A stretch of 64,000 nucleotides of DNA. Source: Sialis fuliginosa (Eukaryota; Arthropoda; Insecta; Megaloptera; Sialidae). Both the position numbers and the translations under genes were made by a program. Shown in pieces: positions 2,296 through 32,770 of the stretch. The stretch is taken from assembly GCA_961205875.1 (NCBI GenBank), contig OY540821.1, positions 4,216,001 through 4,280,000 on the forward strand, in the 5' to 3' direction. The notes beneath the pieces were generated by a model that saw nothing but the letters and a program-made list of their open reading frames with translations, had not been told where the DNA came from and did no database searches. Within the stretch, counting starts at the first letter, position 1, and each line of letters starts with the position of its first letter.

Positions 2296-3084
2296 TAAAT
2301 GAATCGTGTAATTGATTTGAATCAATAATACGTGTAAAAAAAATTTATTGTTATCGACCTTTGAATATAACTGTTGTTTTAGTGTTTGAAATGTAATAAT
2401 TCTATTACTTATTTAGTAAAATAACATATATTTTATACAAAACTCCAGACGTGGTTTACTATTTTATTTTTTATTTTACTTAAAGCTTTATGAAAATATT
2501 ATATCATAGCTGAAATAAAACTTATAAAAATTATATATAGCATATTAGTAAATAAATAATACATCAAAAATAACATTAATTCAACTTAATTAATTCCAAA
2601 TTATGTTATATATTTACAAATGTTTACATATATCTTATAACTAATACTGTTAAAAATGTCATGTAGGTAACTACAAGTGCTATGAATCTATTATCATGCA
2701 TAAATATAATTATTATTATTGTAAATATATAGTTTTCTATTTAAATTATAATTACAGTAAAAACTGTATATGTTTAGTGGTCTTTACATATTTCTATTTA
2801 TCTTTGAGTTATCTCGTACTAGCTAGAATAATACTAAAATAAAAACTTAAATAACAGCTTAATAAGTACGTAATATTTATGATTTATTAACAGAAGAAAA
2901 ATTACTTGAGAGATAGTATTGCTGCCAGTTATTCTAAAAGAAGTCAATAGTTTATCTGATACTGGAGGTAGCCCTGTCAGAGAAATATTATTCTAGTAAC
3001 TATTGAGTTAACTAATAAATATGAAAAAATGATAAGTCATTTTGCATAAACTTTTTTCTACCTTGATGGTATATAAGTTACTAA
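2296..3084. other. AT-rich intergenic stretch, 3' flank of the first ankyrin gene
   Basis: No gene or clear repeat is seen. A TTTATT at 2883-2888 reads AATAAA on the minus strand, about 200 nt past the stop codon of the ankyrin gene, and is a possible poly(A) signal. Confidence 0.35.
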
Positions 3085-4983
3085 TTATTTATTATAATAA
3101 TTATTAATATTATTGATAATAATAGTTTTTGCATGTTTAATATCACCCACATTTTGAGCGCTTGTATTATTGCTATCATTAAAACTTGTTGATAATATTT
3201 GACTGTCTAACACTGGAGATGTTGATTGAGGAGCATCAACAGGGCCACTTGTTGGAGAGTTGGTATTGCTACTAGTTACACTTGATGGTGGTATTTGAAT
3301 GTTTAATACTGGAGATATTGCTTGAGAAACATGAACAAGGTCGCTTGTTGGAGTGTTGGTATTGCTGCTAGTTAAACTTGATGGTATTTGATTGTCTAAC
3401 ACTGGAAATATTACTTCAGGAGCATCAACAAGGCCACTTGTTAGAGTGTTGGTATTGCTGCTAGTTACAGATGACAGTGGTATTTGATTGTTTAACATTG
3501 GAGATTTTTCTTGAGAAACATTAACAGGGTTAATTGTTTTTGTAAAGTCGTTATTATTACAAGTTATATTTAAAGGGGCCAGTTTTTTGCCTATTGGTGT
3601 TTTTTCTTGAGAAATATCAATAGGGTCACTTATTGGAAAGTTAGTTATGCTGCTAGATACACTTGATGGTGATATTTGATTGTTAAAGGCTGGATATTTT
3701 ACTTCAGAAGTAATATTTAGTTTGGGTTCATTTACTTTTAACTTTTCAGTTTGAGTTTTATTACTGACACTTATATAATTAGATAATAAGTTCACGATTT
3801 CAGTATAACCTTGACTACGGGCAACATCGTCAACTGTTCTTCTTCTATTAATTACGTTCACATCGGCTCCTTTCTCCAAAAGCACACGAATCACGTCGAT
3901 ATGGCCCCTTTTTGTTGCAAGCAGTAGAGCTGTGTCACCTTGTACATTAACTGCATTCACATTTGCGCCAATATTGAGTAACTCCTTCACTCTTTCTGTC
4001 TGTCCAATACTAGCTGCGTCGAGAAGATGTGAAGTAGTAGTGTCACTTGTACTTGATATTGGTAAAGAAACAGTGGTACTTGTTTTTAAAGGGTTTGTAT
4101 TGTTGCTTCTTCTAAAATTTACACTTGTTAGTTCATTTTGATTCACGGTTGAAGATTTTTCAATATTCAGTTCAGGTCCCTTTTCCTTTAAATTTTCAGT
4201 TTCTATTTTATCACTTACACTACTCAATAAGTTCACGATCTCTGTATGACCATTAATACTTGCATAGTCGCGGGCTGTTTTACCTTTTTGATTAATTACG
4301 TTTATATCTACACTTGTACTCAGTAGTTTTTTTACTACCTCCGTATGACCCCTAAAAGCAGCAATAATTAGACATGTATCACCGTCTTCATCGACTGCGT
4401 TAACATCTGAACCTTTCTCAATTAATTTAGAGACTACCTCTGTGTGGCCATTATTAGCAGCAAGAATTAGACTTGTATTGCCGTTTGTATTAACAATATT
4501 CACATCGGCACCTTTGTCTATTAACGCTTGGACTTCTTCTACATGACCATTCATAGAAGCAAGAGTCAGACCTGTATTACCCTTTGAGTTAACAATATTC
4601 ACATCGGCGCCATTGTCTATTAAGGTCCGAACTACCTTCGTATGACCTTTACTAGCAGCAAGAATTAGACCGGTGCTACCGTTTTTACTCACGATGTTTA
4701 TATCGGCACCGTTCTCAATTAGTACTTGGACTACCTTCGTGTGACCCCTATCAGCTGCAAGAATTAGACCTGTGTTGCCGTTTGTATTAACAATGTTTAC
4801 GTCGGCATCTTTCTTAAGCAATGCACGGACTACCTTTATGTGACCATTCATAGAAGCAACTTGTAAAGCTGTTCGATTATTTGTATCTGTAGTATTCACG
4901 TTGACTCCCTTTATTAATAATCTCTTTACTGTGTCTATATTACCATCGCGGGCTGCGTCGAAAAGAGATATATTTGAACCCAT
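3085..4983 (-). CDS. Ankyrin-repeat protein with Ser/Thr/Pro-rich repeated tail (632 aa, intronless)
   Basis: Residues 1-264 form eight 33-residue ankyrin repeats of the pattern 'G.T.L..A...GH..VV..LI..GADVNIVN'; the eighth is degenerate. Residues about 265-319 are a Ser/Thr-rich linker. Residues 320-408 carry three more ankyrin repeats. Residues 409-632 are a low-complexity tail in which a unit of about 32 residues ('SPVLN.QIP.SSVTSSNTN') recurs about five times. Ankyrin repeats are protein-binding scaffolds; no catalytic domain, signal peptide or membrane segment is visible, so the partner is unknown and a cytosolic or nuclear scaffold is an inference. The ATG at 4983 is chosen because it starts the first ankyrin helix directly and sits in the same context as the start of the paralogue at 13259. 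The gene lies about 3.2 kb downstream of that paralogue on the same strand. It could be a retrocopy, since it has no intron. The reading frame is certain; the function is not. Confidence 0.88.
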   Translation of the reverse strand: MGSNISLFDAARDGNIDTVKRLLIKGVNVNTTDTNNRTALQVASMNGHIKVVRALLKKDADVNIVNTNGNTGLILAADRGHTKVVQVLIENGADINIVSKNGSTGLILAASKGHTKVVRTLIDNGADVNIVNSKGNTGLTLASMNGHVEEVQALIDKGADVNIVNTNGNTSLILAANNGHTEVVSKLIEKGSDVNAVDEDGDTCLIIAAFRGHTEVVKKLLSTSVDINVINQKGKTARDYASINGHTEIVNLLSSVSDKIETENLKEKGPELNIEKSSTVNQNELTSVNFRRSNNTNPLKTSTTVSLPISSTSDTTTSHLLDAASIGQTERVKELLNIGANVNAVNVQGDTALLLATKRGHIDVIRVLLEKGADVNVINRRRTVDDVARSQGYTEIVNLLSNYISVSNKTQTEKLKVNEPKLNITSEVKYPAFNNQISPSSVSSSITNFPISDPIDISQEKTPIGKKLAPLNITCNNNDFTKTINPVNVSQEKSPMLNNQIPLSSVTSSNTNTLTSGLVDAPEVIFPVLDNQIPSSLTSSNTNTPTSDLVHVSQAISPVLNIQIPPSSVTSSNTNSPTSGPVDAPQSTSPVLDSQILSTSFNDSNNTSAQNVGDIKHAKTIIINNINNYYNK

Positions 4984-5070
4984 TGTTGCTGTAGTTCTTT
5001 AGAATTTCATATTGTAGGTGACGGATAGTTTATCTAAAATTAAAATTGTAATTATTATATAAATATCAAT
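4984..5070 (-). promoter_or_regulatory. 5' leader with three-codon uORF and TATA-like sequence
   Basis: Read on the minus strand, a TATTTATATAA-like box lies near 5056-5066. The leader contains ATGAAATTCTAA at 4999-5010, a complete Met-Lys-Phe-stop ORF 27 nt upstream of the main start. The 1690-aa paralogue has the equivalent ATGAACTTTTAA. The promoter assignment is weak; the uORF is directly visible. Confidence 0.4.
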
Positions 5071-5479
5071 AATGGTTTTATGGCATTTATATTGCTATAA
5101 AAAAATGTTTTGTAATTCCCCCCTCCCCAAAAGTTAATTAATTAATTAATTAAGCCCTTATTTGAGAGAGTCGGTCAAGAGATCGGTCAAGGCATATGTA
5201 TACCATTAGGGTTCCAAAGGTATTACGTGGACTATTTGTAGCCCGTCGAAGGTGACATTTTTGCGTTAGAAAAAAGGATCGAATTCTACTCATTAAGATC
5301 TACACATGCTTTACAAGGGAACCTTGTCAAGTGGCATATTCGGATCAAGTTTAAATTTTGTATATAGTTAGAGCGGGTCATGACTAGTAAGAAAAATATT
5401 ATCTTAACTGCGGTAAAACGGTTTAAGGGGATGAAATACCCCTATGAAAATGACAACAGTGGAAATTCGAAAAATGAAA
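5071..5479. other. Intergenic stretch without a gene
   Basis: It contains a short (TTAA)n run near 5132-5152 and a phrase near 5312-5330 ('ttacaagggaacctt') that resembles the terminus of the 45345-45881 element. Nothing else is recognised. Confidence 0.3.
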
Positions 5480-8186: not shown

Positions 8187-11100
8187 TTAATGAATAATAC
8201 TGTTTGTATTCCCAATTACTACATCAGCACCTTTCTCGATTAACGCTCGGACTATCTCCTTGTGCCCTTTACTAGCAGCAAGAGATACAGCTGTATTGCC
8301 GGTTGAACTCACAATATTAACATCTGCATCTTTCTCGATTAATGCTCGAACTACCTCTAGGTGACCCCTATCAGCAGCAAGTAGTAGACCTGAATTACCG
8401 CTGGTATTCACAATGTTTACATCAGCACCATTCTCGATTAATACATGAACAATCTCTTTGCGGCCCATATTAGCAGCAAGTAGTAAAGCTGTATTGCCAG
8501 TTTTACTCACAATATTCACATCGGCATCTGCTTTGATTAATTCACTAACTATTTCCGTGTGGCCATTCAAAGCAGCAAGAATTAGTCCTGTATTACCGTT
8601 TGTATTCACAACGTTCAAATCGACACCTTTCTCGATTAAAACACTGACAACTTCCGTGTGCCCCTTACTAGCAGCAAGAAGTACAGCTGAATTGCTAGTT
8701 GAACTCACAATGTTCACATCGGCACCTTCCTCAATTAATGTTCGGACTATCTCAAGGTGACCCCTATCAGCAGCAAGTAGTAGACCTGAATTACCGCTAG
8801 TATTCACAACGTTCACATCGGCACCATTCTCGATTAATACATGGACAATCTCCTTGCGGCCCATACTACCAGCAAGTAGTAAAGCTGTATTGCCAGTTTT
8901 ACTCACAATATTCACATCGGCATCTGCTTTGATTAATTCACTAACTATTTCCGTGTGGCCATTCAAAGCAGCAAGAATTAGACCTGTATTACCGTTTGTA
9001 TTCACAACGTTCAAATCGGCACCTTTCTCGATTAAAACACTGACAACTTCCGTGTGCCCCTTACTAGCAGCAAGAAGTACAGCTGTATTGCTAGTTGAAC
9101 TCACAATGTTCACATCGGCACCTTCCTCGATTAATGTTCGGACTATCTCAAGGTGACCCCTATCAGCAGCAAGAATTAAACCTGAATTACCGTTTGTATT
9201 CACAATATTAACATCCGCACCATTTTCAATTAAAGCACAAACTACTTCCTTGTGGCCTTTACTAGCTGCAAGAAGTACGGCTGTATTACCGGTTTTACTA
9301 ACAATATTCACATCGGCACCATTCTCGATCAATGCTCGGACTATCTCCGTGTGACCATTCATAGCAGCAAGTATGAGAGCTGTATTGCCGTTTGTATTCG
9401 CTATATTCACATCGGCACCATTCTCGATTAATGCATGGACTATCTCCTTGTGACCTTTAGTAGCAGCATGCAATATAGCAGTATAACTAGTTAAACTCAC
9501 AATATTCACATCGGCACCTTTCTTGATTAATTCACGAACCACCTCCGTGTGACCATTCATAGCAGCAAGAATAAGACCTGTATTGCCGTTTGTAGTTGCT
9601 GTATTAACATCGGCACCCTTCTCAAGGAAGGCATGGACTACCTCCAGGTGACCATTTATAATTGCAAGTAGTGCAGCTGTGTAACCGATTGTATTCACAA
9701 TATTCACGTCAGCACCATTCTTAATTAATGCACGGACTACCTCCGTGTGACCCCTATCAGCAGAAAGCATTAGACCTGTATTACCGTTTGTATTTGCAAT
9801 ATTTACATCGGCACCTTTCTCGATTAATGCACGAACTACCTTCGTGTGGCCATTCATAGCAGCAAGTACTACAGCTGTATTTCTGTTTGTATTCGTAATA
9901 TTCACGTCTGCACCTATCTCAATTAATGTACGGACAACTTCCGTGTGACCCCTATCAGAAGCAAGAATTAGACTTGTGTTTCCATTTGTATTCGGAATAT
10001 TAACATCGGCACCTTTCTCGGAAAATGTACGCACTACATCCGCGTGACCATACAAAGCAGCTATCACAAGACCTGTATTGCCACTTGTATTCACAATATT
10101 CACATCGGCACCTTTCTCAATTAATGTACGAACTACCTCGTTGAAACCCTTACTAGCAGCAAGTAGCACAGCCGTATTTCCTGTTTTACTCACAAAATTC
10201 ACATCAGCACCTTTTTCAATTAATGTCTGGACTACTTCCTTGTGTCCATTGCCAGCAGCAAGAAATAGGACTGTATTATCGTTTGTATTCACAATATTCA
10301 CATCTGCACCCATCTCAATTAACACACGGACTGACTCCGTGTGGCCATTCATAGCAGCAAGTAGTAGAGCTGAATTACCGGCTGTACTCACAATGTTGAC
10401 ATCGGCACCTTGATTGATTAATGCTCGGACAACCTCAGTGTGACCATTCATAGCGGCTAGAATTAGACCTGTATTACCGTTTGTGTTCACAATATTCACA
10501 TCGGCCCCTTTCTCGATTAACACTTGGACTATCTCGGTGTGACCATTCATAGCAGCAAGAATTAGACCTGTATTACCGCTGGTATTCACAAAATTTACTT
10601 CGGCACCTTTCTCAATTAGTGCACGGACTATCTCCTTGTAGCCATTCAAAGCAGCTAGAATGAGACCTGTATTGCCGTTTACATTCACAATATTTACATC
10701 TGCACCATTCTCGATTAATGCACGGACTACCTCATAGTGCCCTTTACTAGCTGCATGTAGTACAGCTGAATTTCCGGTTGAACTCACAATGTTCACTTCG
10801 GCACCATTCTCGATTAATGCGAGGACTGCCTCCGTGTGACCATTCATAGCAGCAAGAATTAAACTTGTATTTCCATTTGTATTTACAATATTCACATTGG
10901 TTCCTTTAACGATAATTGCACGAACAATATCCGTGTATCCCCTATATGCCGCAAGAACTAGACATGTATTACCGTATGTATTCACAATGTTTACATCAGC
11001 ACCATTCTCAATTAATTCACTTACTACCTCTGTCTGACCCTTATCTGCAGAAAGAATTAGACCTGTGTTACCGTTTGTATTCACAATATTTACATCGGCA

Positions 11101-13259
11101 CCATTCTCGATTAGTGCACGAACTACCTCCGTATGACCATTTTTTACAGCTTGAATTAGACCTGTATTGCCGTCTTTATTCAAAATATTCATATCGGCAC
11201 CACTTTTGATTAACACACTGACTACCTCAGTGTATCCATTACTAGCAGCTAGAATCAGACCTGTATTACCGTTTTTATTTATAATATTCACATCGGCACC
11301 TTTCTCGATTAATGTACAAACTACCTCCATGTGACCATTCATAGCAGCAAGAACTAGACCTGTATTACCGTCTGTATTCACTATATTTACATCGGCACCT
11401 TCCTCGATTAATGCCCGAAGTACCTCATAGTGCCCTTTACTAGCTGCATGTAGTACAGCTGTATTTCCGGTTGAACTCACAATGTTCACTTCGGCACCTT
11501 CCTCGATTAATGCGAGGACTGCCTCCGTGTGACCATTCATAGCAGCAAGAATTAAACTTGTATTACCATTTGTATTCACAATATTCACATTGGCGCCTTT
11601 AACGATAATTGCACGAACAATATCCGTGTATCCCCTATATGCCGCAAGAACTAGACATGTGTTACCGTATGTATTCACAATGTTCACATCAGCACCATTC
11701 TCAATTAATTCACATACTACCTCTGTCTTCCCCTTATCTGCAGAAAGAATTAGACCTGTGTTACCGTTTGTATTCACAATATTAACATCGGCACCATTCT
11801 CGATTAGTGCACGAACTACCTCCGTATGACCATTTTTTGCGGCTTGAATTAGACCTGTATTGCCGTCTTTATTCAAAAAATTCATATCGGCACCTTTTTT
11901 GATTAACACACTGACTACCTCAGTGTGTCCATTACTAGCAGCTAGAATCAGACCTGTATTACCGTTTTTATTTACAATATTCACATCGGCACCTTTCTCG
12001 ATTAAAGTACAAACCACCTCCATGTGACCATTCATAGCAGCAAGAACTAGACCTGTATTACCATCTGTATTCACTGTATTTACATCGGCACCTTTCTCAA
12101 TTAGTGCATGGACTATCTTCTTGTGGCCATTCAAAGCAGCTAGAATGAGACCTGTATTGCCGTTTGTATTCACAATGTTTACATCGGCATCTTTCTCGAT
12201 TAATGTACGGATTACTTCCAAGTGACCATTCATAGCGGCAAGAGTTAGACCGGTTTCACCGTATGCATTCACTGTGTTCACATAGGCACCTTCCTCGATT
12301 AATGCTCGGACTACCTCCGTGTGACCATTCATAGCGGCAAGAGTTAAAGCTGGTTCACCTTCTGTATTTACTGTGTTTACATCGGCACCTTGCTCGATTA
12401 ATATACATACCACTTCTGTGTGACCATTCATAGCAGCTAGAGTCAGACCTGTTTCTTCGTCTGCATTTACTGTGTTCACATCAGCACCTTGCTCGATCAA
12501 TGCACAGACTACTTTTGCGTGACCATTCATAGCGGCAAGAGTGAGACTTGTATCACCTTGTGTATTTACAGTGTTCACATCGGCACCTTTCTCGATCAAT
12601 GCTCGGACTATCTCCGTGTGACCATTCATAGCAGCAAGAGTCAGGCCTGTTTCACCATCTTTATTCACCGTGTTCACATTGGCACCATTTTCGATTAACA
12701 CGCGGATAACCTCTGTATGACCTTTACTAGCAGCAAGGCTTAGACCTGATTCATCTTCTGTATTCACAATATTCACATCGGCACCTTTCTTGATTAAGTC
12801 TCGGACTATCTTCGTGTGACCATTCATAGCAGCAAGAATAAGACCTGTGTTACCGTTTGTCTTTACAATATTCACATCGGCACCTTTCTCGATCAATGCT
12901 CGGACTATTTCCGTGTGGCCATTCAAAGCGGCAAGAGTTAGACCTGTTTCACCGTATGTATTTACAATGTTCAAATCGGCACCTTTTTCGATTAATGCAT
13001 GGACTACTTCCGTGTGGCCATTCATAGCAGCAAAAGTTAGACTTGATTCACCGTATGCATTCACTGTGTTCACATCGGCACCATTTTCAATTAACGTTCG
13101 GACTATCTCCGTGTGACCCTTACTAGCAGCATTTAATATCGCGGTATGATTGAATTTATTATCTACGTTGACTCCCTTATCTAATAATCTCTTCACTGTG
13201 TCTATATCACCATCGTAGGTTGCGTCGACAATACATACATTAGATACATTTGAATCCAT
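8187..13259 (-). CDS. Giant ankyrin-repeat protein, about 50 uniform repeats (1690 aa, intronless)
   Basis: The first 34 residues form an N-terminal capping repeat closely related to that of the 632-aa paralogue (both contain 'DG[ND]IDTVKRLL.KGVNV'). After this the protein is an uninterrupted array of 33-residue ankyrin repeats with consensus 'NGNTGLILAAMNGHTEVVRALIEKGADVNIVNT', ending in a six-residue tail TNSIIH. The arithmetic 34 + 50x33 + 6 = 1690 fits exactly, so no repeat carries an indel. No other domain, signal peptide or membrane segment is present. Such an array should form a long superhelical protein-binding scaffold; the ligand is unknown. At the DNA level the gene is a 99-bp tandem array with 4-unit and 7-unit blocks duplicated. 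The ATG at 13259 is preceded by a leader matching that of the paralogue. Assembly collapse or expansion is possible in such an array, but the frame is intact throughout, which argues for selection. Confidence 0.9.
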   Translation of the reverse strand: MDSNVSNVCIVDATYDGDIDTVKRLLDKGVNVDNKFNHTAILNAASKGHTEIVRTLIENGADVNTVNAYGESSLTFAAMNGHTEVVHALIEKGADLNIVNTYGETGLTLAALNGHTEIVRALIEKGADVNIVKTNGNTGLILAAMNGHTKIVRDLIKKGADVNIVNTEDESGLSLAASKGHTEVIRVLIENGANVNTVNKDGETGLTLAAMNGHTEIVRALIEKGADVNTVNTQGDTSLTLAAMNGHAKVVCALIEQGADVNTVNADEETGLTLAAMNGHTEVVCILIEQGADVNTVNTEGEPALTLAAMNGHTEVVRALIEEGAYVNTVNAYGETGLTLAAMNGHLEVIRTLIEKDADVNIVNTNGNTGLILAALNGHKKIVHALIEKGADVNTVNTDGNTGLVLAAMNGHMEVVCTLIEKGADVNIVNKNGNTGLILAASNGHTEVVSVLIKKGADMNFLNKDGNTGLIQAAKNGHTEVVRALIENGADVNIVNTNGNTGLILSADKGKTEVVCELIENGADVNIVNTYGNTCLVLAAYRGYTDIVRAIIVKGANVNIVNTNGNTSLILAAMNGHTEAVLALIEEGAEVNIVSSTGNTAVLHAASKGHYEVLRALIEEGADVNIVNTDGNTGLVLAAMNGHMEVVCTLIEKGADVNIINKNGNTGLILAASNGYTEVVSVLIKSGADMNILNKDGNTGLIQAVKNGHTEVVRALIENGADVNIVNTNGNTGLILSADKGQTEVVSELIENGADVNIVNTYGNTCLVLAAYRGYTDIVRAIIVKGTNVNIVNTNGNTSLILAAMNGHTEAVLALIENGAEVNIVSSTGNSAVLHAASKGHYEVVRALIENGADVNIVNVNGNTGLILAALNGYKEIVRALIEKGAEVNFVNTSGNTGLILAAMNGHTEIVQVLIEKGADVNIVNTNGNTGLILAAMNGHTEVVRALINQGADVNIVSTAGNSALLLAAMNGHTESVRVLIEMGADVNIVNTNDNTVLFLAAGNGHKEVVQTLIEKGADVNFVSKTGNTAVLLAASKGFNEVVRTLIEKGADVNIVNTSGNTGLVIAALYGHADVVRTFSEKGADVNIPNTNGNTSLILASDRGHTEVVRTLIEIGADVNITNTNRNTAVVLAAMNGHTKVVRALIEKGADVNIANTNGNTGLMLSADRGHTEVVRALIKNGADVNIVNTIGYTAALLAIINGHLEVVHAFLEKGADVNTATTNGNTGLILAAMNGHTEVVRELIKKGADVNIVSLTSYTAILHAATKGHKEIVHALIENGADVNIANTNGNTALILAAMNGHTEIVRALIENGADVNIVSKTGNTAVLLAASKGHKEVVCALIENGADVNIVNTNGNSGLILAADRGHLEIVRTLIEEGADVNIVSSTSNTAVLLAASKGHTEVVSVLIEKGADLNVVNTNGNTGLILAALNGHTEIVSELIKADADVNIVSKTGNTALLLAGSMGRKEIVHVLIENGADVNVVNTSGNSGLLLAADRGHLEIVRTLIEEGADVNIVSSTSNSAVLLAASKGHTEVVSVLIEKGVDLNVVNTNGNTGLILAALNGHTEIVSELIKADADVNIVSKTGNTALLLAANMGRKEIVHVLIENGADVNIVNTSGNSGLLLAADRGHLEVVRALIEKDADVNIVSSTGNTAVSLAASKGHKEIVRALIEKGADVVIGNTNSIIH
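8355..9146 (-). repeat. Higher-order duplication of four ankyrin units (2 x 396 bp)
   Basis: Sequence from about 8355 to 8750 recurs at about 8751-9146 with an offset of exactly 396 bp (4 x 99), for example 'ggcccata' at 8462 and 8858. The two blocks differ by only scattered substitutions, more similar to each other than to the neighbouring units. This indicates a recent in-frame tandem duplication, probably by unequal crossing-over. Confidence 0.8.
10705..12090 (-). repeat. Higher-order duplication of seven ankyrin units (2 x 693 bp)
   Basis: Blocks from about 10705-11397 and 11398-12090 match unit by unit at an offset of 693 bp (7 x 99). Rare variants are shared: 'cctttaacgataattgcacg' occurs at 10903 and 11596, and 'ccatttttt' units occur at 11128 and 11829. 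A further related unit is found 1485 bp (15 x 99) away (10641 versus 12126). Confidence 0.8.
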
Positions 13260-13366
13260 TGTTGCAGTAGTTTTAGAGATCGTGTTTTAAAAGTTCATAT
13301 TGTATATGTCTGACAGTAGATCTGAAATTAAATATATAATATTATATAATAATTTTATAAAACTTA
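13260..13366 (-). promoter_or_regulatory. 5' leader with three-codon uORF
   Basis: On the minus strand the leader holds ATGAACTTTTAA (13287-13298), a Met-Asn-Phe-stop ORF 39 nt upstream of the main start. It lies within 'CAATATGAA', which is shared with the leader at 4984-5070. TATA-like AT runs lie near 13330-13358. The promoter assignment is weak. Confidence 0.4.
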
Positions 13367-14240: not shown

Positions 14241-14823
14241 ATCGGTATGGAGAACCATACATGACTTCCATGTTCTTTAATATATTTTAAAATAATTTTT
14301 AATATATGAGAAATTTCAATGGGATTTGTCAGAAATAAAACTCACCTTTGTATAAATAATGTCCTAATGTCAAAAACATAATACACATTCGTAGAACAAC
14401 TAATTTGACAATTTGAATTTAGATTTTAGTTGCATTTGTTTCCAAGACAACATAAATTGATGACGTATTAATTATTATTTAAAATTTAAATTTTGAGGGT
14501 GTTTTCATCCCTTCAATGGCTGTTTAAGCACGTACAAATAATAAATGTCCATTAGGTTCAATTGAACTACAAATGTACCAAGTCTTATCAAAATTAGTGA
14601 GACAATACTCGCAACGTTCACTTTTTAGACGAAAATAGTTACAAAATTTCGAATATTTCCAAAACCCCTAATCCGATTAGCACCAAAATCAATAGGTCTG
14701 GAGTACTTACTGAGACAAACATTTTCCCCAAAAATAATTCAGATCGGTGCATTTGTACGGTAGTTATCGTGAACGAAATAAAATTCTATTAAATTAACTT
14801 TTCTTTACATTTTGAAGTTAGTA
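14241..14823 (+). repeat. Repeat family E, left part (interrupted)
   Basis: It begins near 'ggagaaccatacatgacttc' and aligns with the reverse complement of 53280-53940. Shared phrases are 'ggttcaattgaactac', 'caatactcgcaacgtt', 'ccgattagcaccaaaatcaa' and 'cagatcggtgcattt'. It stops abruptly at the end of the 4.2 kb element and resumes at 19070. The outer ends, ACTTCCATGTTCT near 14263 and its complement near 19140, form a short TIR. Confidence 0.8.
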
Positions 14824-15877
14824 CACGGAGAAAAACGGAGGTTGAAATATACGAAAAAATACTCTGATAAAATTAATATTTATAAAAAAATTTTTATATA
14901 TGACATATATAAGTAAATTTTATATAAAATCAAGAAAATGTAATAGACACACATAAAAATTTATAAAGCAGCTGAGTAATTTTTTGAGTCTTTAATTTTT
15001 AATAACCGAAATAAAAAAATATATTTTATTTTAAAAAAAAAGTAAAAAACAAGTCCTGAAATTTTGTGAATCGAAAGTAAAGTTTCAATAAATGATGGTC
15101 ATTTATTAAAGTATAAGTAGAAAAAATTATTTCCTTTCGGTTATAGTTTTTTAATAATTGATGTAAACATTTTTTCTAGTCTTTTTATCACAAATTGGCA
15201 ATGAATATAGAAAAATTCCTTTTTACTTGAGAAATTTTTCCCAAAAACCATTTTATTTTTATTTTACTTCATATAAATTTTATAATTTTTTTAGATTTTT
15301 TGTTATCGCTAAATTCTAAAGTTTCTTATGCTGACACAAAACAATAATCGTAAAGCTAGCATAATAAAAATTCATCACTTTTTAGATTTTTTTAAAGTAT
15401 TCTTTGGTAATTTTTATTTCATGGTTGGAGTATAATTTACATTACCAATATACAACAAATATTATTCTGCCAGCATAATAAAATTTGTCAGGCTTCAACT
15501 GATATTTAATCAATTGAAATAAACTTTTCATAGAACACTATTAAATTGTGAAAACTTACTAACAATTTTTGTATCTATTTGGTAAAATTTAATCCAAGTT
15601 TAGCAATTATTTATTTTTTTACTATAAAATTTTATTGCATTTAAGTCAAATTTACTACTTTAACCATACATAGTATTCTTTTGTTCTCAGCGCTAGACTG
15701 AGCTCGGCCATCACGGTGTACAGGGGGGTTCAGTACTTTGCCAACATTGTTCGGAGACGCATATCTAATCGTTCCATCGAGTTTTTAACTTAACGATTAT
15801 CAGAAGTTTATTGTTTCGAATCATTTAAATGTTGTGACAAGTGTGTAGTGATACTTATTTGAATTTCAAACATTATC

Positions 15878-17460
15878 ATGTGGGAGATGCTAACAGAATG
15901 GGGGTTAGGCCATCTGAAATCTACATTTGAAAGTAAGTTATATATATTTTTTTCTTTTTATTGTTGATTTGGTGAATATTTGTGATTTAAAATAATGTTA
16001 TTGCTATGCTTATTGTTTCAACTCGGTTATAAGTGCAACGCAGTTATTATTACAATGTAGAATATTTTGTTTCTACAATTACTACGATTATTAAGAATGT
16101 AAATTCATTTTATTTTTTTTATATACTTACAAGGGAACACAGAGGTGCATCGAGTTATGGGTAGAGAATCCACGTGGTTATAGTCGAGGCTTGATACCAA
16201 TCTAAAAATATTGGCAAGCCTACAGAATCAACCAGAAGCCACTTTATTAAAGAGCTGGAAAATTACATATCCCCATCGCAGGAAACTTCTTACAGAAAAC
16301 AAAATATGTGTCAAAGAGTATTATACACAATTTCCTTACTTACAAGCAGAAATCGGCACTAAATTTGTAAGTTAACTCACTGTAAATTTTCATTATTGAT
16401 TTTTTAGTTCTAAGAGAAATGATTAACAAAGTCGAAAAAAAAATATTTCGAATTTATTATTTCTTCATTTTTTGTAAATAATGTTTTAATAATTGCAAAC
16501 CGTACTAGCTATTACTTAAATAAAATAATATCAGCATTTAAGTTACATATATAAAATACATATAAACATTACTTTGTTTTTTTTTATTCATTTCTTATTT
16601 TTTACAGATAAGTTTCGACTTTGATTGCCTTTTCCTAAATTCAAGGAAACAATTATCGAATAGTTGGAATAACTTAAAAACGAAATTAACGGCATTACTG
16701 TCGGAAAAAAATTCACAGCTAAGAAATATTGATGATAGAACACTGGCAAATAGTTTGCGGCATATCAAAGAGGAAGGTAAAAAAAGAGTTTTATCCCTTT
16801 GGTCATTAATTTCATTCAATTAGTTTTTAATAATATTTTATGAACGTTTTTTCATTTCTCTTTTAGCTTGTAAAGATGCGATTATTTGGTATCTTTTATC
16901 AAGTTTAATAACTGGACTCTACATCTCAAATCCAGTTTCTGATGAAATCCAAGAAGGCGGTAAAGAAAATAGTCAATCAACAACCAAAAAACGTAACTCC
17001 TGCAGAAGCCCGTTATTCTTCATTTTTGATTGTGCCGGTAATTTAATTTGTCTTAGATATAATATACACTCCCTGAGAGAATACAATAATTTATTTTTTA
17101 CCATAATACATCATTGTTTTTCAGAATATTGCTGGAATTGAAGAAGCTGTGAAAAAAAGACAAGATTATCTTACACTTAATAATCTGAGTTGCCAACCTA
17201 TCGCAGTTCTCGTCGGAGCAATTGATCGAGTTGAAGATGCTTATGTTTACGTAGAAGACAAACGATACAGAACAAAGTTCACATTAGCAGCCCTCGATTT
17301 AACTTTTAAAAGCTTCTTTGCGCTTGATTGTGAATATCCACGAGCAGGAGTTCACATATGGACTTTTATTCAGCAGGTTGTATACGATATTCAACTACCT
17401 AAAAATGATTTTACGTCTACTAGTTTAAGTAACTTGATCAGTGACTTAACACAAAAGTAA
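15878..17460 (+). pseudogene. SAM-domain (SAMD3-like) gene copy, five exons, decayed
   Basis: Inferred exons are 15878-15932, 16134-16366, 16608-16776, 16867-17037 and 17125-17460, all with GT-AG boundaries (GTAAGT after exons 1 and 2). Exon 1 encodes MWEMLTEWGLGHLKSTFE, like the first helices of a SAM domain; the rest of a SAM domain is not found. Exons 2-5 encode segments typical of multi-copy insect and fish proteins annotated as SAM-domain or SAMD3-like: 'PYLQAEIGTKF', 'ISFDFDCLF', 'QPIAVLVG' and a C-terminal 'AALDLTFKSFFALDCEYP' followed by 'WTFIQQVVYDI'. The role of this family is unknown to me. Two lesions are visible: an in-frame TAG at 16181-16183 in exon 2, and a frame change inside exon 4 between 16912 and about 16990, because its start reads in one frame and its end ('TPAEARYSSFLIVP') in another, the one that joins exon 5. 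An AATAAA at 17568 fits its 3' end. The whole gene lies inside a TIR element. The family match is from memory and moderate; exon 5 is the strongest part. Confidence 0.65.
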
Positions 17461-17567
17461 TTTATTTTTGAACGGCGCTGCGAACTTTTTATATTTATTT
17501 TTACATTTAATGTTGTTATAGATATATCCGTTAAATTTTAATTATCATATATAATATTAATATAATT

Positions 17568-17573
17568 AATAAA
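17568..17573 (+). terminator. Candidate poly(A) signal of the SAM-type gene
   Basis: AATAAA lies about 110 nt downstream of the TAA stop at 17458-17460, a normal spacing. Confidence 0.45.
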
Positions 17574-17810
17574 ACATTTAAGAATATTACTTAATATCTT
17601 ACTTAGCATAAATATATTGATAAGTTTCTAAGGACAAATTACTACTTATCGAGATTTTAAGATATTTTTGAAATAATCTAATGCTAATTCAATAGCTTTA
17701 ATACTAATTTTAATTATAATTATTAATATAACATAACTATTCACTTTTTAATTTTTATATTTATTATTTGGTCATACTTTAATTTTATTTCAAATATATT
17801 GTAGACTTAA

Positions 17811-17908
17811 CCCTTTGAGTCCTGATTTTTTCAGTTGTGCGGACTAAGACGCTAGGAAATAATTTATAAATAGGTGGTTCCAGTGCGAAGCTACTAGGAC
17901 TCAAAGGA
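17811..17908. mobile_element. Tiny TTAA-flanked MITE (98 bp, piggyBac-like)
   Basis: TTAA occurs at 17807-17810 and 17909-17912. The ends CCCTTTGAGTCCT and AGGACTCAAAGGA are inverted repeats with one mismatch. TTAA duplication with C-rich termini is the piggyBac pattern. It is nested inside the 4.2 kb TIR element, downstream of the SAM-type gene. Confidence 0.8.
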
Positions 17909-18120
17909 TTAAGTAGTCACAATATATTTGGAGTATATTTTTTTGATTATATTTTAAAAAGATGGATTTCATTACTCTTTTTTTATAATATACAAAAATG
18001 TATTGTATTCATATTTGAATGTTTAATTAAAATAAAATAATATGTAATTAAAAAATTAGATAAATGTATTTTTTATTTTATACCTTTTATGCGAAATTAA
18101 TGTAATTAAGATACTCTGTA

Positions 18121-18552
18121 AAATTTATAATAGCAAATTAATGTTGATGGGACTTTTCTTTACTTTATAAGTTAAGCGTAATACAAATTGCAATTTTATT
18201 TCAAATATATTGTAGACTATTTAAAAATACCAATACTGTTGTAGTATATGACACCAATATACAAGATTACAAACACATACAGTGTACATTTTCCTATTGG
18301 TATCTTTCAAATAATTAATATTTAAACATATAACAACATATATATTTAAATATTAATTATTTGAAAGATACCAATAGGAAAATGTACACTGTATGTGTTT
18401 GTAATCTTGTATATTGGTGTCATATACTACAACAGTATTGGTATTTTTAAATAGTCTACAATATATTTGAAATAAAATTACAATTCGTATTACGCTTAAC
18501 TTATAAAGTAAAGAAAAGTCCAATCAAAATTAATTTGCTATTGCTATAAATT
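18121..18552. repeat. Long hairpin: 206-bp inverted arms, 18-bp loop
   Basis: Left arm 18121-18326 and right arm 18345-18552 are complementary. The inner 134 bp or so (18192-18326) pair without a mismatch by eye; the outer part has small differences. The arm phrase 'tttcaaatatattgtagact' also occurs upstream at 17787-17807, so the hairpin reuses sequence of the element itself. It lies about 660 bp past the SAM-type stop codon. A transcript through it would fold into a long double strand. Confidence 0.9.
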
Positions 18553-19069
18553 TTTAAAAGAGCCTCAATATTTATTGTATATCAGTACTATAATTTTTAT
18601 GAAGCTTAGTATACAAACTAAAAGAAAGAAACAAAAATTATTATCTCGTAATGTTAAATTTTAAGCATACTTAAACCATATATTTTAAATACTTTTAATA
18701 TTTTTTTCAATGCTTCATATTAAAAAAAAAAAAAAAATTTACAAAAATCGTTGCGTAAGTAGCATTTTTTATTATCGTGAGTTGATAGATATTGTACAAC
18801 AGCGACACAATTTTTGTGGTGTCAGTTATTCTAATTAAACAAGGTTATTTAATTTTTATTATGCTGTCCACGAAATTTTCTATTCTTTGAATAAAAAGTT
18901 TTACAAGAAAAGTTTAAATTTTATTATGCTGTAATACAAAAAATTACTACAATTTTAATAAAAAGTATGAGAATCTCATACGGTTTCATTTTTCATTAGC
19001 TGGCATAATAAAAATTCATTGATTTTTCAGTAAAATTTCATGGAATTTCTACCTTCATTTTTCTCCGTG

Positions 19070-19155
19070 TACAATCAGAATTTGTCATTTTCTCGGACAC
19101 GATTTTTCGATGGTATTACAATACTTCCATTTCTTTCAGAACATGGAAGTAAAAA
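19070..19155 (+). repeat. Repeat family E, right part
   Basis: 'aatcagaatttgtcat', 'cgatggtattacaatac' and 'ttccatttctttcagaacat' continue repeat E after the 4.2 kb insertion. They match 32543-32633 (inverted) almost base for base. Confidence 0.8.
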
Positions 19156-32542: not shown

Positions 32543-32770
32543 TTCCATGTTCAGAAAGAAATGGAAGTATTGTAATACCATCGAAAAATCGTGTCAAAGA
32601 TAAGAGCAGATTCTGATTGTACTAACTTCAAAACTTAAAGAAAAGTTAATTTCCGCATGGCGGCTGTGCATGTGTCTGTGTGTCTGGATGTAGAATTTTC
32701 TTTCGTTCACGATAACTACTTTAAAAATGCACCGATCTGAATTATTTTTGGGGAAATTGTAATTTTTATT
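32543..32770 (-). repeat. Repeat family E, truncated copy giving the empty site
   Basis: It runs from 'ttccatgttcagaaagaaat' to 'cgatctgaattatttttgg'. It contains 'attctgattgtactaac' without insertion, exactly where the 4.2 kb TIR element sits in the 14.2-19.2 kb copy. It is truncated at about 32770. Confidence 0.8.

What the first reader, a model, noticed from the sequence alone, without database searches (positions are those of the whole stretch)
14824..19069. SAM-type gene enclosed in a 4.2 kb TIR element with a proven empty site
Seen: imperfect 24-bp TIRs (CACGGAGAAAAA...), a GTAC or TA duplication, and insertion into repeat E, two other copies of which in the same window (near 32620 and 53290) keep the unoccupied site. 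The only gene inside is a five-exon SAMD3-like copy with its own poly(A) signal; there is no transposase. Known: this protein family is multi-copy in insects and fish and has no settled function. Inference: either a transposon is mobilising a host gene, or this protein family belongs to an undescribed element and explains its own multi-copy spread.
Basis: partly seen in the sequence, partly recalled or inferred. Interest (0 to 1): 0.85.

Follow-up and report, generated by a model that had tools for sequence, protein, structure and literature searches.

The report
CACTA transposon keeping only helper gene
The 4.2 kb insertion is a cut-down copy of a two-gene jumping element of the CACTA (EnSpm) type: it has lost its transposase but still carries the first gene, a SAM-like protein gene whose many copies in this genome are largely explained by such elements.

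Summary
The element at 14824-19069 is real: CACGGAGAAAAA inverted ends, a TA duplication (not GTAC), and an empty site shown by two other copies of the host repeat. Its genome holds four more complete copies (96-99.5% identical), all flanked by TA. One of them (C6) and a partial copy (C11) still carry, right after the SAM-type gene, part of an EnSpm/CACTA-type transposase; the window copy lacks it at one breakpoint (17780). A different 6.2 kb element with the same 12-bp ends (C14) carries both genes. Two further families (CACTG ends) have the SAM-type gene followed by an open 816- or 835-aa transposase frame. Of 23 transposase loci found, 15 have the SAM-type gene alongside, 3 do not within 1.5 kb upstream, 5 were not examined. 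So the SAM-type gene is gene 1 of a two-gene CACTA lineage, and the window element is a non-autonomous deletion derivative. The window gene is truncated and shows no sign of selection, so a mobilised host gene is unlikely. A TnpA-like role for the protein is inferred. The full-text searches made showed no report of this pairing. Other species were not tested.

The parts
14822..14823 (.). left copy of the target-site duplication (TA)
   Evidence: empty site; TA on both sides in 5 of 5 complete copies
14824..19069 (+). non-autonomous CACTA/EnSpm-type element, 4246 bp
14824..14848 (+). 5' terminal inverted repeat CACGGAGAAAAA...
   Evidence: I7
19045..19069 (-). 3' terminal inverted repeat
   Evidence: I7
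15358..15372 (+). subterminal repeat AGCATAATAAAAATT
15472..15486 (+). subterminal repeat, 1 mismatch
18851..18865 (-). subterminal repeat
18916..18930 (-). subterminal repeat, 1 mismatch
19002..19016 (+). subterminal repeat, 1 mismatch
15878..15932 (+). first exon of the SAM-type gene (MWEMLTEWGLGHLKSTFE), first half of a SAM-like domain by eye
   Evidence: open frame; resembles by eye a family B frame
16155..16189 (+). scar: 35 bp here against about 290 bp in the C6 copy (FPTE...GKL coding stretch)
16184..16369 (+). coding block LDTNLKILASLQNQPEATLL...
16608..16775 (+). coding block ISFDFDCLF...
16870..17010 (+). coding block ACKDAIIWYLL... (limits approximate)
17125..17460 (+). last exon: conserved C-terminal domain of the SAM-type protein, with stop
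17780..17780 (.). breakpoint: about 1.32 kb holding the transposase remnant in copy C6 is absent here
17945..18218 (+). copy of the 3' tail of the transposase region (94.9% to C6), with codons like the transposase C-terminus YILKRWI
18129..18542 (.). large inverted repeat inside the element (204-nt arms, 98%, 6-nt loop)
   Evidence: I1
19070..19071 (.). right copy of the target-site duplication (TA)

Best explanation
The feature is an internal-deletion (non-autonomous) copy of a two-gene DNA transposon of the EnSpm/CACTA kind. The two-gene elements have CAC...GTG ends, 2-bp target duplications and, in most families looked at, repeats near the ends. They carry on one strand first a multi-exon SAM-type (SAMD3-like) gene, then a transposase gene with a DDE core, C(2)C and H(3)H, a conserved DxMHDxxEG and, by weak matches, zinc fingers at its start. 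The window copy lacks the transposase by one clean deletion of about 1.32 kb (and lost part of gene 1), and presumably was moved by a transposase made elsewhere. The SAM-type protein is most likely the TnpA-like partner: it would bind subterminal repeats, perhaps oligomerising through its SAM-like domain, and bring the ends together for the transposase. Shown: anatomy, copies, empty site, linkage, deletion relative to C6. Inferred: supply in trans and the role of the SAM-type protein (about 0.55).
For: Five complete copies with the same ends and TA/TA flanks, pairwise 96.05-99.48% identical. Copy C6 holds a transposase start joined to a C-terminal half right after the SAM-type gene (tblastn with families A and B: 2.6e-39, 6.9e-41); partial copy C11 likewise (3.2e-43, 4.6e-48). 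The window lacks this exactly at 17780. The C14 element of 6229 bp has ends identical to the window's in the first 12 bp, TA on both sides and both genes. Family A (8.8 kb, CACTG ends, 99.99% identical on two contigs) has the SAM-type gene and an 835-aa frame; family B (CACTG left end, four copies) has the SAM-type gene and an 816-aa frame. 15 of 23 transposase loci have the SAM-type gene adjacent. DDE/C2C/HxxxH motifs in A and B: matching the CMC description in PMC12730594 (passages). 5 of 5 hits of the repeat core with <=1 mismatch in 64 kb lie in the element. 24 of 30 sampled CACGGAGAAAAA ends follow a YR dinucleotide against a background of 23.9%.
Against: Pfam support is below threshold: Transposase_21 E=0.01, 15.5 bits against a cutoff of 28.6, for the first of two frames of C14; for family A DUF4218 E=0.018 comes second to FOXP-CC E=0.0012, both below cutoff; family B (700 of 816 aa) gave only weak zinc-finger and other hits. 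No Pfam SAM match. 3 of 18 examined transposase loci show no SAM-type gene within 1.5 kb upstream; five loci were not examined. Five SAM-type loci (2 of group C, C14:4758772, 2 of group D) have no transposase found, one of them unread. The C14 transposase has one stop and its element shares little DNA with the window's beyond the ends, nor the window's subterminal motif near its ends; no intact two-gene element with CACGG ends was found. PMC1636069 (passages) suggests a CCC, not CAC, core for animal CACTA-like TIRs. No experiment shows what the SAM-type protein does.
Confidence: 0.93

Rival explanations
1. A CACTA transposon has captured a host SAM-type gene (transduplication) and now mobilises it as cargo.
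For: CACTA elements are known to capture gene fragments (recalled). The window copy has the gene and no transposase.
Against: The gene lies in the same order and strand beside the transposase in families A, B, C14, at C13:6061553 and C4:26138016, and in the window family, while the five other C-terminal domains compared are only 25-32% identical to the window's, so the pairing is old. In the window family the coding blocks show 26 non-synonymous against 7 synonymous codon differences summed over copies (shared changes counted more than once; few changes, so little power) and identity like the noncoding parts.
Confidence: 0.04
2. The SAM-type protein acts not on the ends but against host silencing or as a regulator of the element's own promoter.
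For: PMC1636069 (passages) states that plant TNPA reactivates a methylated promoter and represses an unmethylated one, so an accessory protein can have this role.
Against: Nothing here tests it; the subterminal repeats fit an end-binding role at least as well.
Confidence: 0.3
3. The ends belong to a TA-targeting Tc1/mariner-type or other element, and the neighbouring CACTA-type transposase is a coincidence.
For: TA is the duplication in 5 of 5 complete SAM-type copies of the window family.
Against: Three family A copies have TA, CA and CG duplications; 24 of 30 sampled CACGGAGAAAAA ends follow TA, CA, TG or CG; the C14 element has both genes inside the same 12-bp ends.
Confidence: 0.02

Closest known systems
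EnSpm/CACTA DNA transposons (CMC/CMCT clade)
   Same: CAC...GTG ends, short duplication, DDE transposase with C(2)C and H(3-4)H between second D and E (PMC12730594 passages); repeats near the ends and a second gene, as recalled for plant CACTA.
   Different: Gene 1 is a SAM-type (SAMD3-like) gene, not seen for CACTA in the searches made; the duplication is 2 bp at YR; the window copy lacks the transposase.
SmTRC1, animal CACTA-like element of Schistosoma
   Same: Animal element with Transposase_21 similarity; a transcript with two ORFs in tandem and shorter transcripts without the transposase domain (PMC1636069 passages).
   Different: SmTRC1 TIRs begin CCC; a passage says no similarity was detected between its accessory proteins and other sequences; no SAM-type gene is mentioned in the passages seen (12 of 32 places).
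Maize En/Spm TnpA-TnpD system
   Same: A second, non-catalytic protein beside the transposase (roles of TNPA/TNPD from PMC1636069 passages; binding of TnpA to subterminal repeats recalled), and end-proximal repeats it could bind.
   Different: No sequence comparison with TnpA was made here; domains differ as far as recalled.
ESTA (EnSpm-like transposons with TA TSDs, fungi)
   Same: CMCT transposase group, TA duplication (PMC12730594 passages).
   Different: Here the related family A also uses CA and CG; ESTA was described in fungi with TET/JBP genes.

Membership tests
EnSpm/CACTA (CMC) transposon | termini 5'-CAC...GTG-3' as inverted repeats | tested here: met
   window family CACGGAGAAAAA, C14 CACGGAGAAAAATTTC, A CACTGAAAGAATTTTT; B left end CACTGAGAAAAATATT only, right end not reached
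EnSpm/CACTA (CMC) transposon | short (2-5 bp across the clade) target-site duplication | tested here: met
   2 bp: TA in 5 of 5 complete window-family copies; TA, CA, CG in three family A copies; of the other three A copies one gave only its left end and two gave no end in the stretches fetched
EnSpm/CACTA (CMC) transposon | transposase DDE core with C(2)C and H(3-4)H between second D and last E | tested here: met
   motif scan: all found in families A and B; in C14 all but the pattern written for the last E. The window copy itself has no transposase
EnSpm/CACTA (CMC) transposon | Pfam Transposase_21 / DUF4218 | tested here: inconclusive
   below the curated cutoffs: PF02992 15.5 vs 28.6 bits for C14, its only hit; PF13960 15.3 vs 27 bits for A, after FOXP-CC 19.7 bits; none for B, 700 of 816 aa scanned
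EnSpm/CACTA (CMC) transposon | subterminal repeats near both ends | tested here: met
   window copy: five copies of the GCATAATAAAA core (<=1 mismatch), none elsewhere in the window (no shuffles made at that setting); 15-mer at <=2 mismatches 8 hits, 7 in the element, against 2.62 expected. Family A has repeats near both ends. The C14 element lacks the window's motif near its ends
EnSpm/CACTA (CMC) transposon | placement with EnSpm in a transposase tree | not tested
   no reference EnSpm protein set is at hand in the tools
SAMD3-like protein family | SAM domain at the N-terminus | tested here: inconclusive
   no Pfam SAM hit for the window protein, a family A exon or two joined family B exons; likeness by eye only; no SAMD3 sequence was compared
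Tc1/mariner | invariable TA duplication | tested here: not met
   CA and CG duplications in the related family A; the window family itself shows TA in 5 of 5

The most novel reading that the evidence does not exclude
The multi-copy SAMD3-like genes of animals in general are the gene-1 (TnpA-equivalent) proteins of a widespread animal CACTA lineage, using a SAM-type domain to polymerise on end repeats; and single-copy vertebrate SAMD3 is a domesticated descendant of such a transposon gene.
Probability: 0.2. Interest if true: 0.8.

Novelty: new variant of a known kind. Interest (0 to 1): 0.6.

Why it matters
It turns a puzzling multi-copy 'host' gene family into a transposon gene. If it holds in other animals, many SAMD3-like models in genome annotations are transposon parts, counts of gene-family expansion based on them are wrong, and the question of what animal CACTA elements use as a second protein becomes testable with a defined protein, ends and repeats.

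Tried and rejected
GTAC as the duplication: rejected, copies C3, C4 and C5 share only TA. Tc1/mariner: rejected. SAM domain by Pfam, PHROGs or PDB sequence search: nothing significant. PDB profile searches gave only weak zinc-finger hits for the transposase N-terminus (best E=0.05) and weak DARK hits for the C-terminal domain (best E=0.08). Relatives in viral contigs and prokaryote contigs: none confirmed. Family B right end: not reached. Ends of the C14 and C1 copies of family A: not found in the stretches fetched. Papers: ten searches; others listed none; of the others I saw listings only (20 of 1,401, 20 of 1,486, 1, 20 of 88, 3, 6 and 2 papers), and none of the titles or abstract starts points to a SAM-type gene in a CACTA element. 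Passages of two papers were read with a term search. Repbase is not searchable here. Not done: tree of transposases, any other species, the genome search with family B's SAM-type protein, structure prediction (not accepted).
Full report
Observation. The element runs from 14824 to 19069, 4246 bp, with inverted ends CACGGAGAAAAA. Joining its flanks reproduces the sequence of two other copies of the host repeat, near 32620 and 53290, which have a single GTAC where the element sits. From this site alone the duplication could be TA or GTAC. Other copies decide for TA: C3 has TTAGTA|CACGG...CCGTG|TAGTAA, C4 TTGGTA|...|TAGGAT, C5 ATTCTA|...|TACTAA; C6, AACGTA|...|TACAAA, fits either.

The end sequence. 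Exact CACGGAGAAAAA occurs 549 times in the genome, against 43 for the reversed control. Of the 30 places fetched (all on contig C1), 24 follow TA, CA, TG or CG, against a background of 23.9% for these dinucleotides. Of 16 candidate partner ends within the fetched 1.5 kb (some surely false; L021 and L022 are two ends of one element), 8 share the same 2-bp flank and none shares 3 bp. So many short elements use these ends, with 2-bp duplications at YR.

Subterminal repeats. The core GCATAATAAAA occurs five times in the 64-kb window with at most one mismatch, all five in the element: at 534 and 648 from the left end and about 67, 153 and 218 from the right (no shuffle control at this setting). The 15-mer with two mismatches has 8 hits in the window, 7 in the element, against 2.62 expected in shuffles (1 of 100 shuffles reached 8). 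The motif was chosen after looking at the element's repeats.

Copies of the gene. The window protein finds 34 exon matches, which I group into 22 loci: the window family 6 (C13, C3, C4, C5, C6, C11), family A 6, family B 4, groups C and D 2 each, and single loci at C14:6762423 and C14:4758772. Five of the six window-family copies are complete with both ends (4134-5871 bp, pairwise 96.05-99.48% identical where aligned); no intact end was found for C11 in the stretches read. The extra 1567 bp of C5 is a large palindromic insert and its extra 288 bp did not match the other copies; I take both to be nested insertions.

The lost transposase. Copy C6 has about 1.32 kb that the window lacks at position 17780. 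It encodes a transposase-like start (MFVCFGCEEAF) joined to a C-terminal half, found by tblastn with families A and B at 2.6e-39 and 6.9e-41; C11 has the same region (3.2e-43, 4.6e-48). The window keeps a stretch, 17945-18218, that is a second copy of the end of this region (94.9% to C6) and reads YILKRWI like the transposase end in C6; the C14 protein ends YIPKRWV. The window also lost a coding stretch of gene 1: about 290 bp in C6 against 35 bp at 16155-16189. C6 and C11 show what the window lost, though they are themselves defective.

Two-gene elements. C14:6759087-6765315 is 6229 bp, with an inverted repeat that I read as about 47 bp from the printed ends, starting CACGGAGAAAAATTTCAAG, and TA on both sides. 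It has SAM-type exons followed by transposase frames 2975-4399 and 4403-5242, separated by one stop. Beyond the ends it shares little DNA with the window element (best 44 bp at 79.5%) and not the window's subterminal motif near its ends, so it is a relative, not the parent. Family A is 8803 bp with CACTGAAAGAATTTTT ends; two copies are 99.99% identical over 8807 aligned bp on contigs C4 and C12; duplications are TA, CA and, in a third copy, CG. Its SAM-type last exon is followed at once by an 835-aa frame, open in four of six copies. Family B has its left end at CACTGAGAAAAATATTTC with TA before it in one copy and CA in another; its SAM-type gene is followed by an 816-aa frame in all four copies.

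Linkage. A search with family B's transposase (700 of 816 aa) gave 31 matches, which I group into 23 loci. Fifteen have the SAM-type gene adjacent: A 6, B 4, C14:6760452, C6 and C11 (coordinates; sequences for all but one B copy), C13:6061553 and C4:26138016. At those last two the SAM-type exon matches in broken frames. Three have none within about 1.5 kb upstream: C11:820811, C14:6271419, C14:648667. Five were not examined: C14:6279861, C14:6184506, C14:6261387, C14:6305489, C6:4833961. Conversely 13 of 22 SAM-type loci lie beside a transposase; of the other nine, four are complete window-family copies without one (C13, C3, C4, C5), and for five (groups C and D, C14:4758772) none was found in what was read; for one of group C only 1.5 kb on each side was read, and one of group D was not read at all. 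The tool calls its counts lower bounds.

Class of transposase. Families A and B have Y.D[DE]...PLGSH, GDN..[VM]N with C..C, DxMHDxxEG, KHHxxxH and R[YF]E.KH in order, which fits the C(2)C and H(3-4)H features given for EnSpm, Mirage and Chapaev in PMC12730594 (passages); that the D and E in these motifs are the catalytic ones is my inference. Pfam gives Transposase_21 (E=0.01) for C14 and DUF4218 (E=0.018, after FOXP-CC at 0.0012) for A, all below their cutoffs, and neither for B. I therefore file the elements as EnSpm/CACTA on ends, duplication, repeats and motifs, with the tree not done.

Does the window gene still do anything? In four coding blocks the other window-family copies differ from the window by 26 non-synonymous and 7 synonymous codons in total, with shared changes counted more than once (C4 gave no row for one block), and identity (96.0-100%) is like that of the noncoding parts (97.1-99.6%). 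There is no sign of selection, as expected for dead or parasitic copies, but the numbers are small. Between families the C-terminal domain keeps nine invariant columns at 25-32% identity to the window protein, and the frames of families A and B are open.

Mechanism. Most likely the transposase cuts at the CAC ends and the SAM-type protein helps it assemble on subterminal repeats, as TnpA does for TnpD in maize (recalled; in part in PMC1636069 passages). This step is inferred, at about 0.55. An anti-silencing or regulatory role is the main rival.

Literature. The searches named in Tried and rejected showed no account of a SAM-type gene in a CACTA element; I saw their listings, not the papers. 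Repbase and most subscription papers are outside the library, so this is a weak negative.

Noticed in passing
window 3085-4998 and 8187-13286 (- strand): Two long uninterrupted frames of 637 and 1699 aa, full of ankyrin-like repeats by eye (no domain search), beside the element.
   Followed up: no
window 18129-18542: Inside the element, an almost perfect 204-nt inverted repeat with a 6-nt loop; similar in the C3 and C4 copies. A transcript through it would form a long hairpin, possibly a source of small RNAs.
   Followed up: partly
G000:C4:8074163-8082965, C12, C5 (two places): Four family A copies are 99.9-100% identical over the stretches compared, with an open 835-aa transposase frame each: it looks recently active. 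Two further copies (C1, C14) are about 99% identical and broken.
   Followed up: partly
G000:C14, about 6.18-6.31 Mb: Cluster of more distant transposase loci (6184k, 6261k, 6271k, 6279k, 6305k).
   Followed up: partly
copy C5, G000:C5 about 33.03 Mb (L035/L042/L068/L072): A 1567-bp palindromic insert starting TACAGGGTAG is nested in the C5 copy.
   Followed up: no
G000:C13:6061553-6063598 and G000:C4:26138016-26139904: Related transposase frames (813 aa open at C13) whose adjacent SAM-type exon is interrupted at the same spacing in both copies: perhaps an intron, perhaps shared decay.
   Followed up: partly
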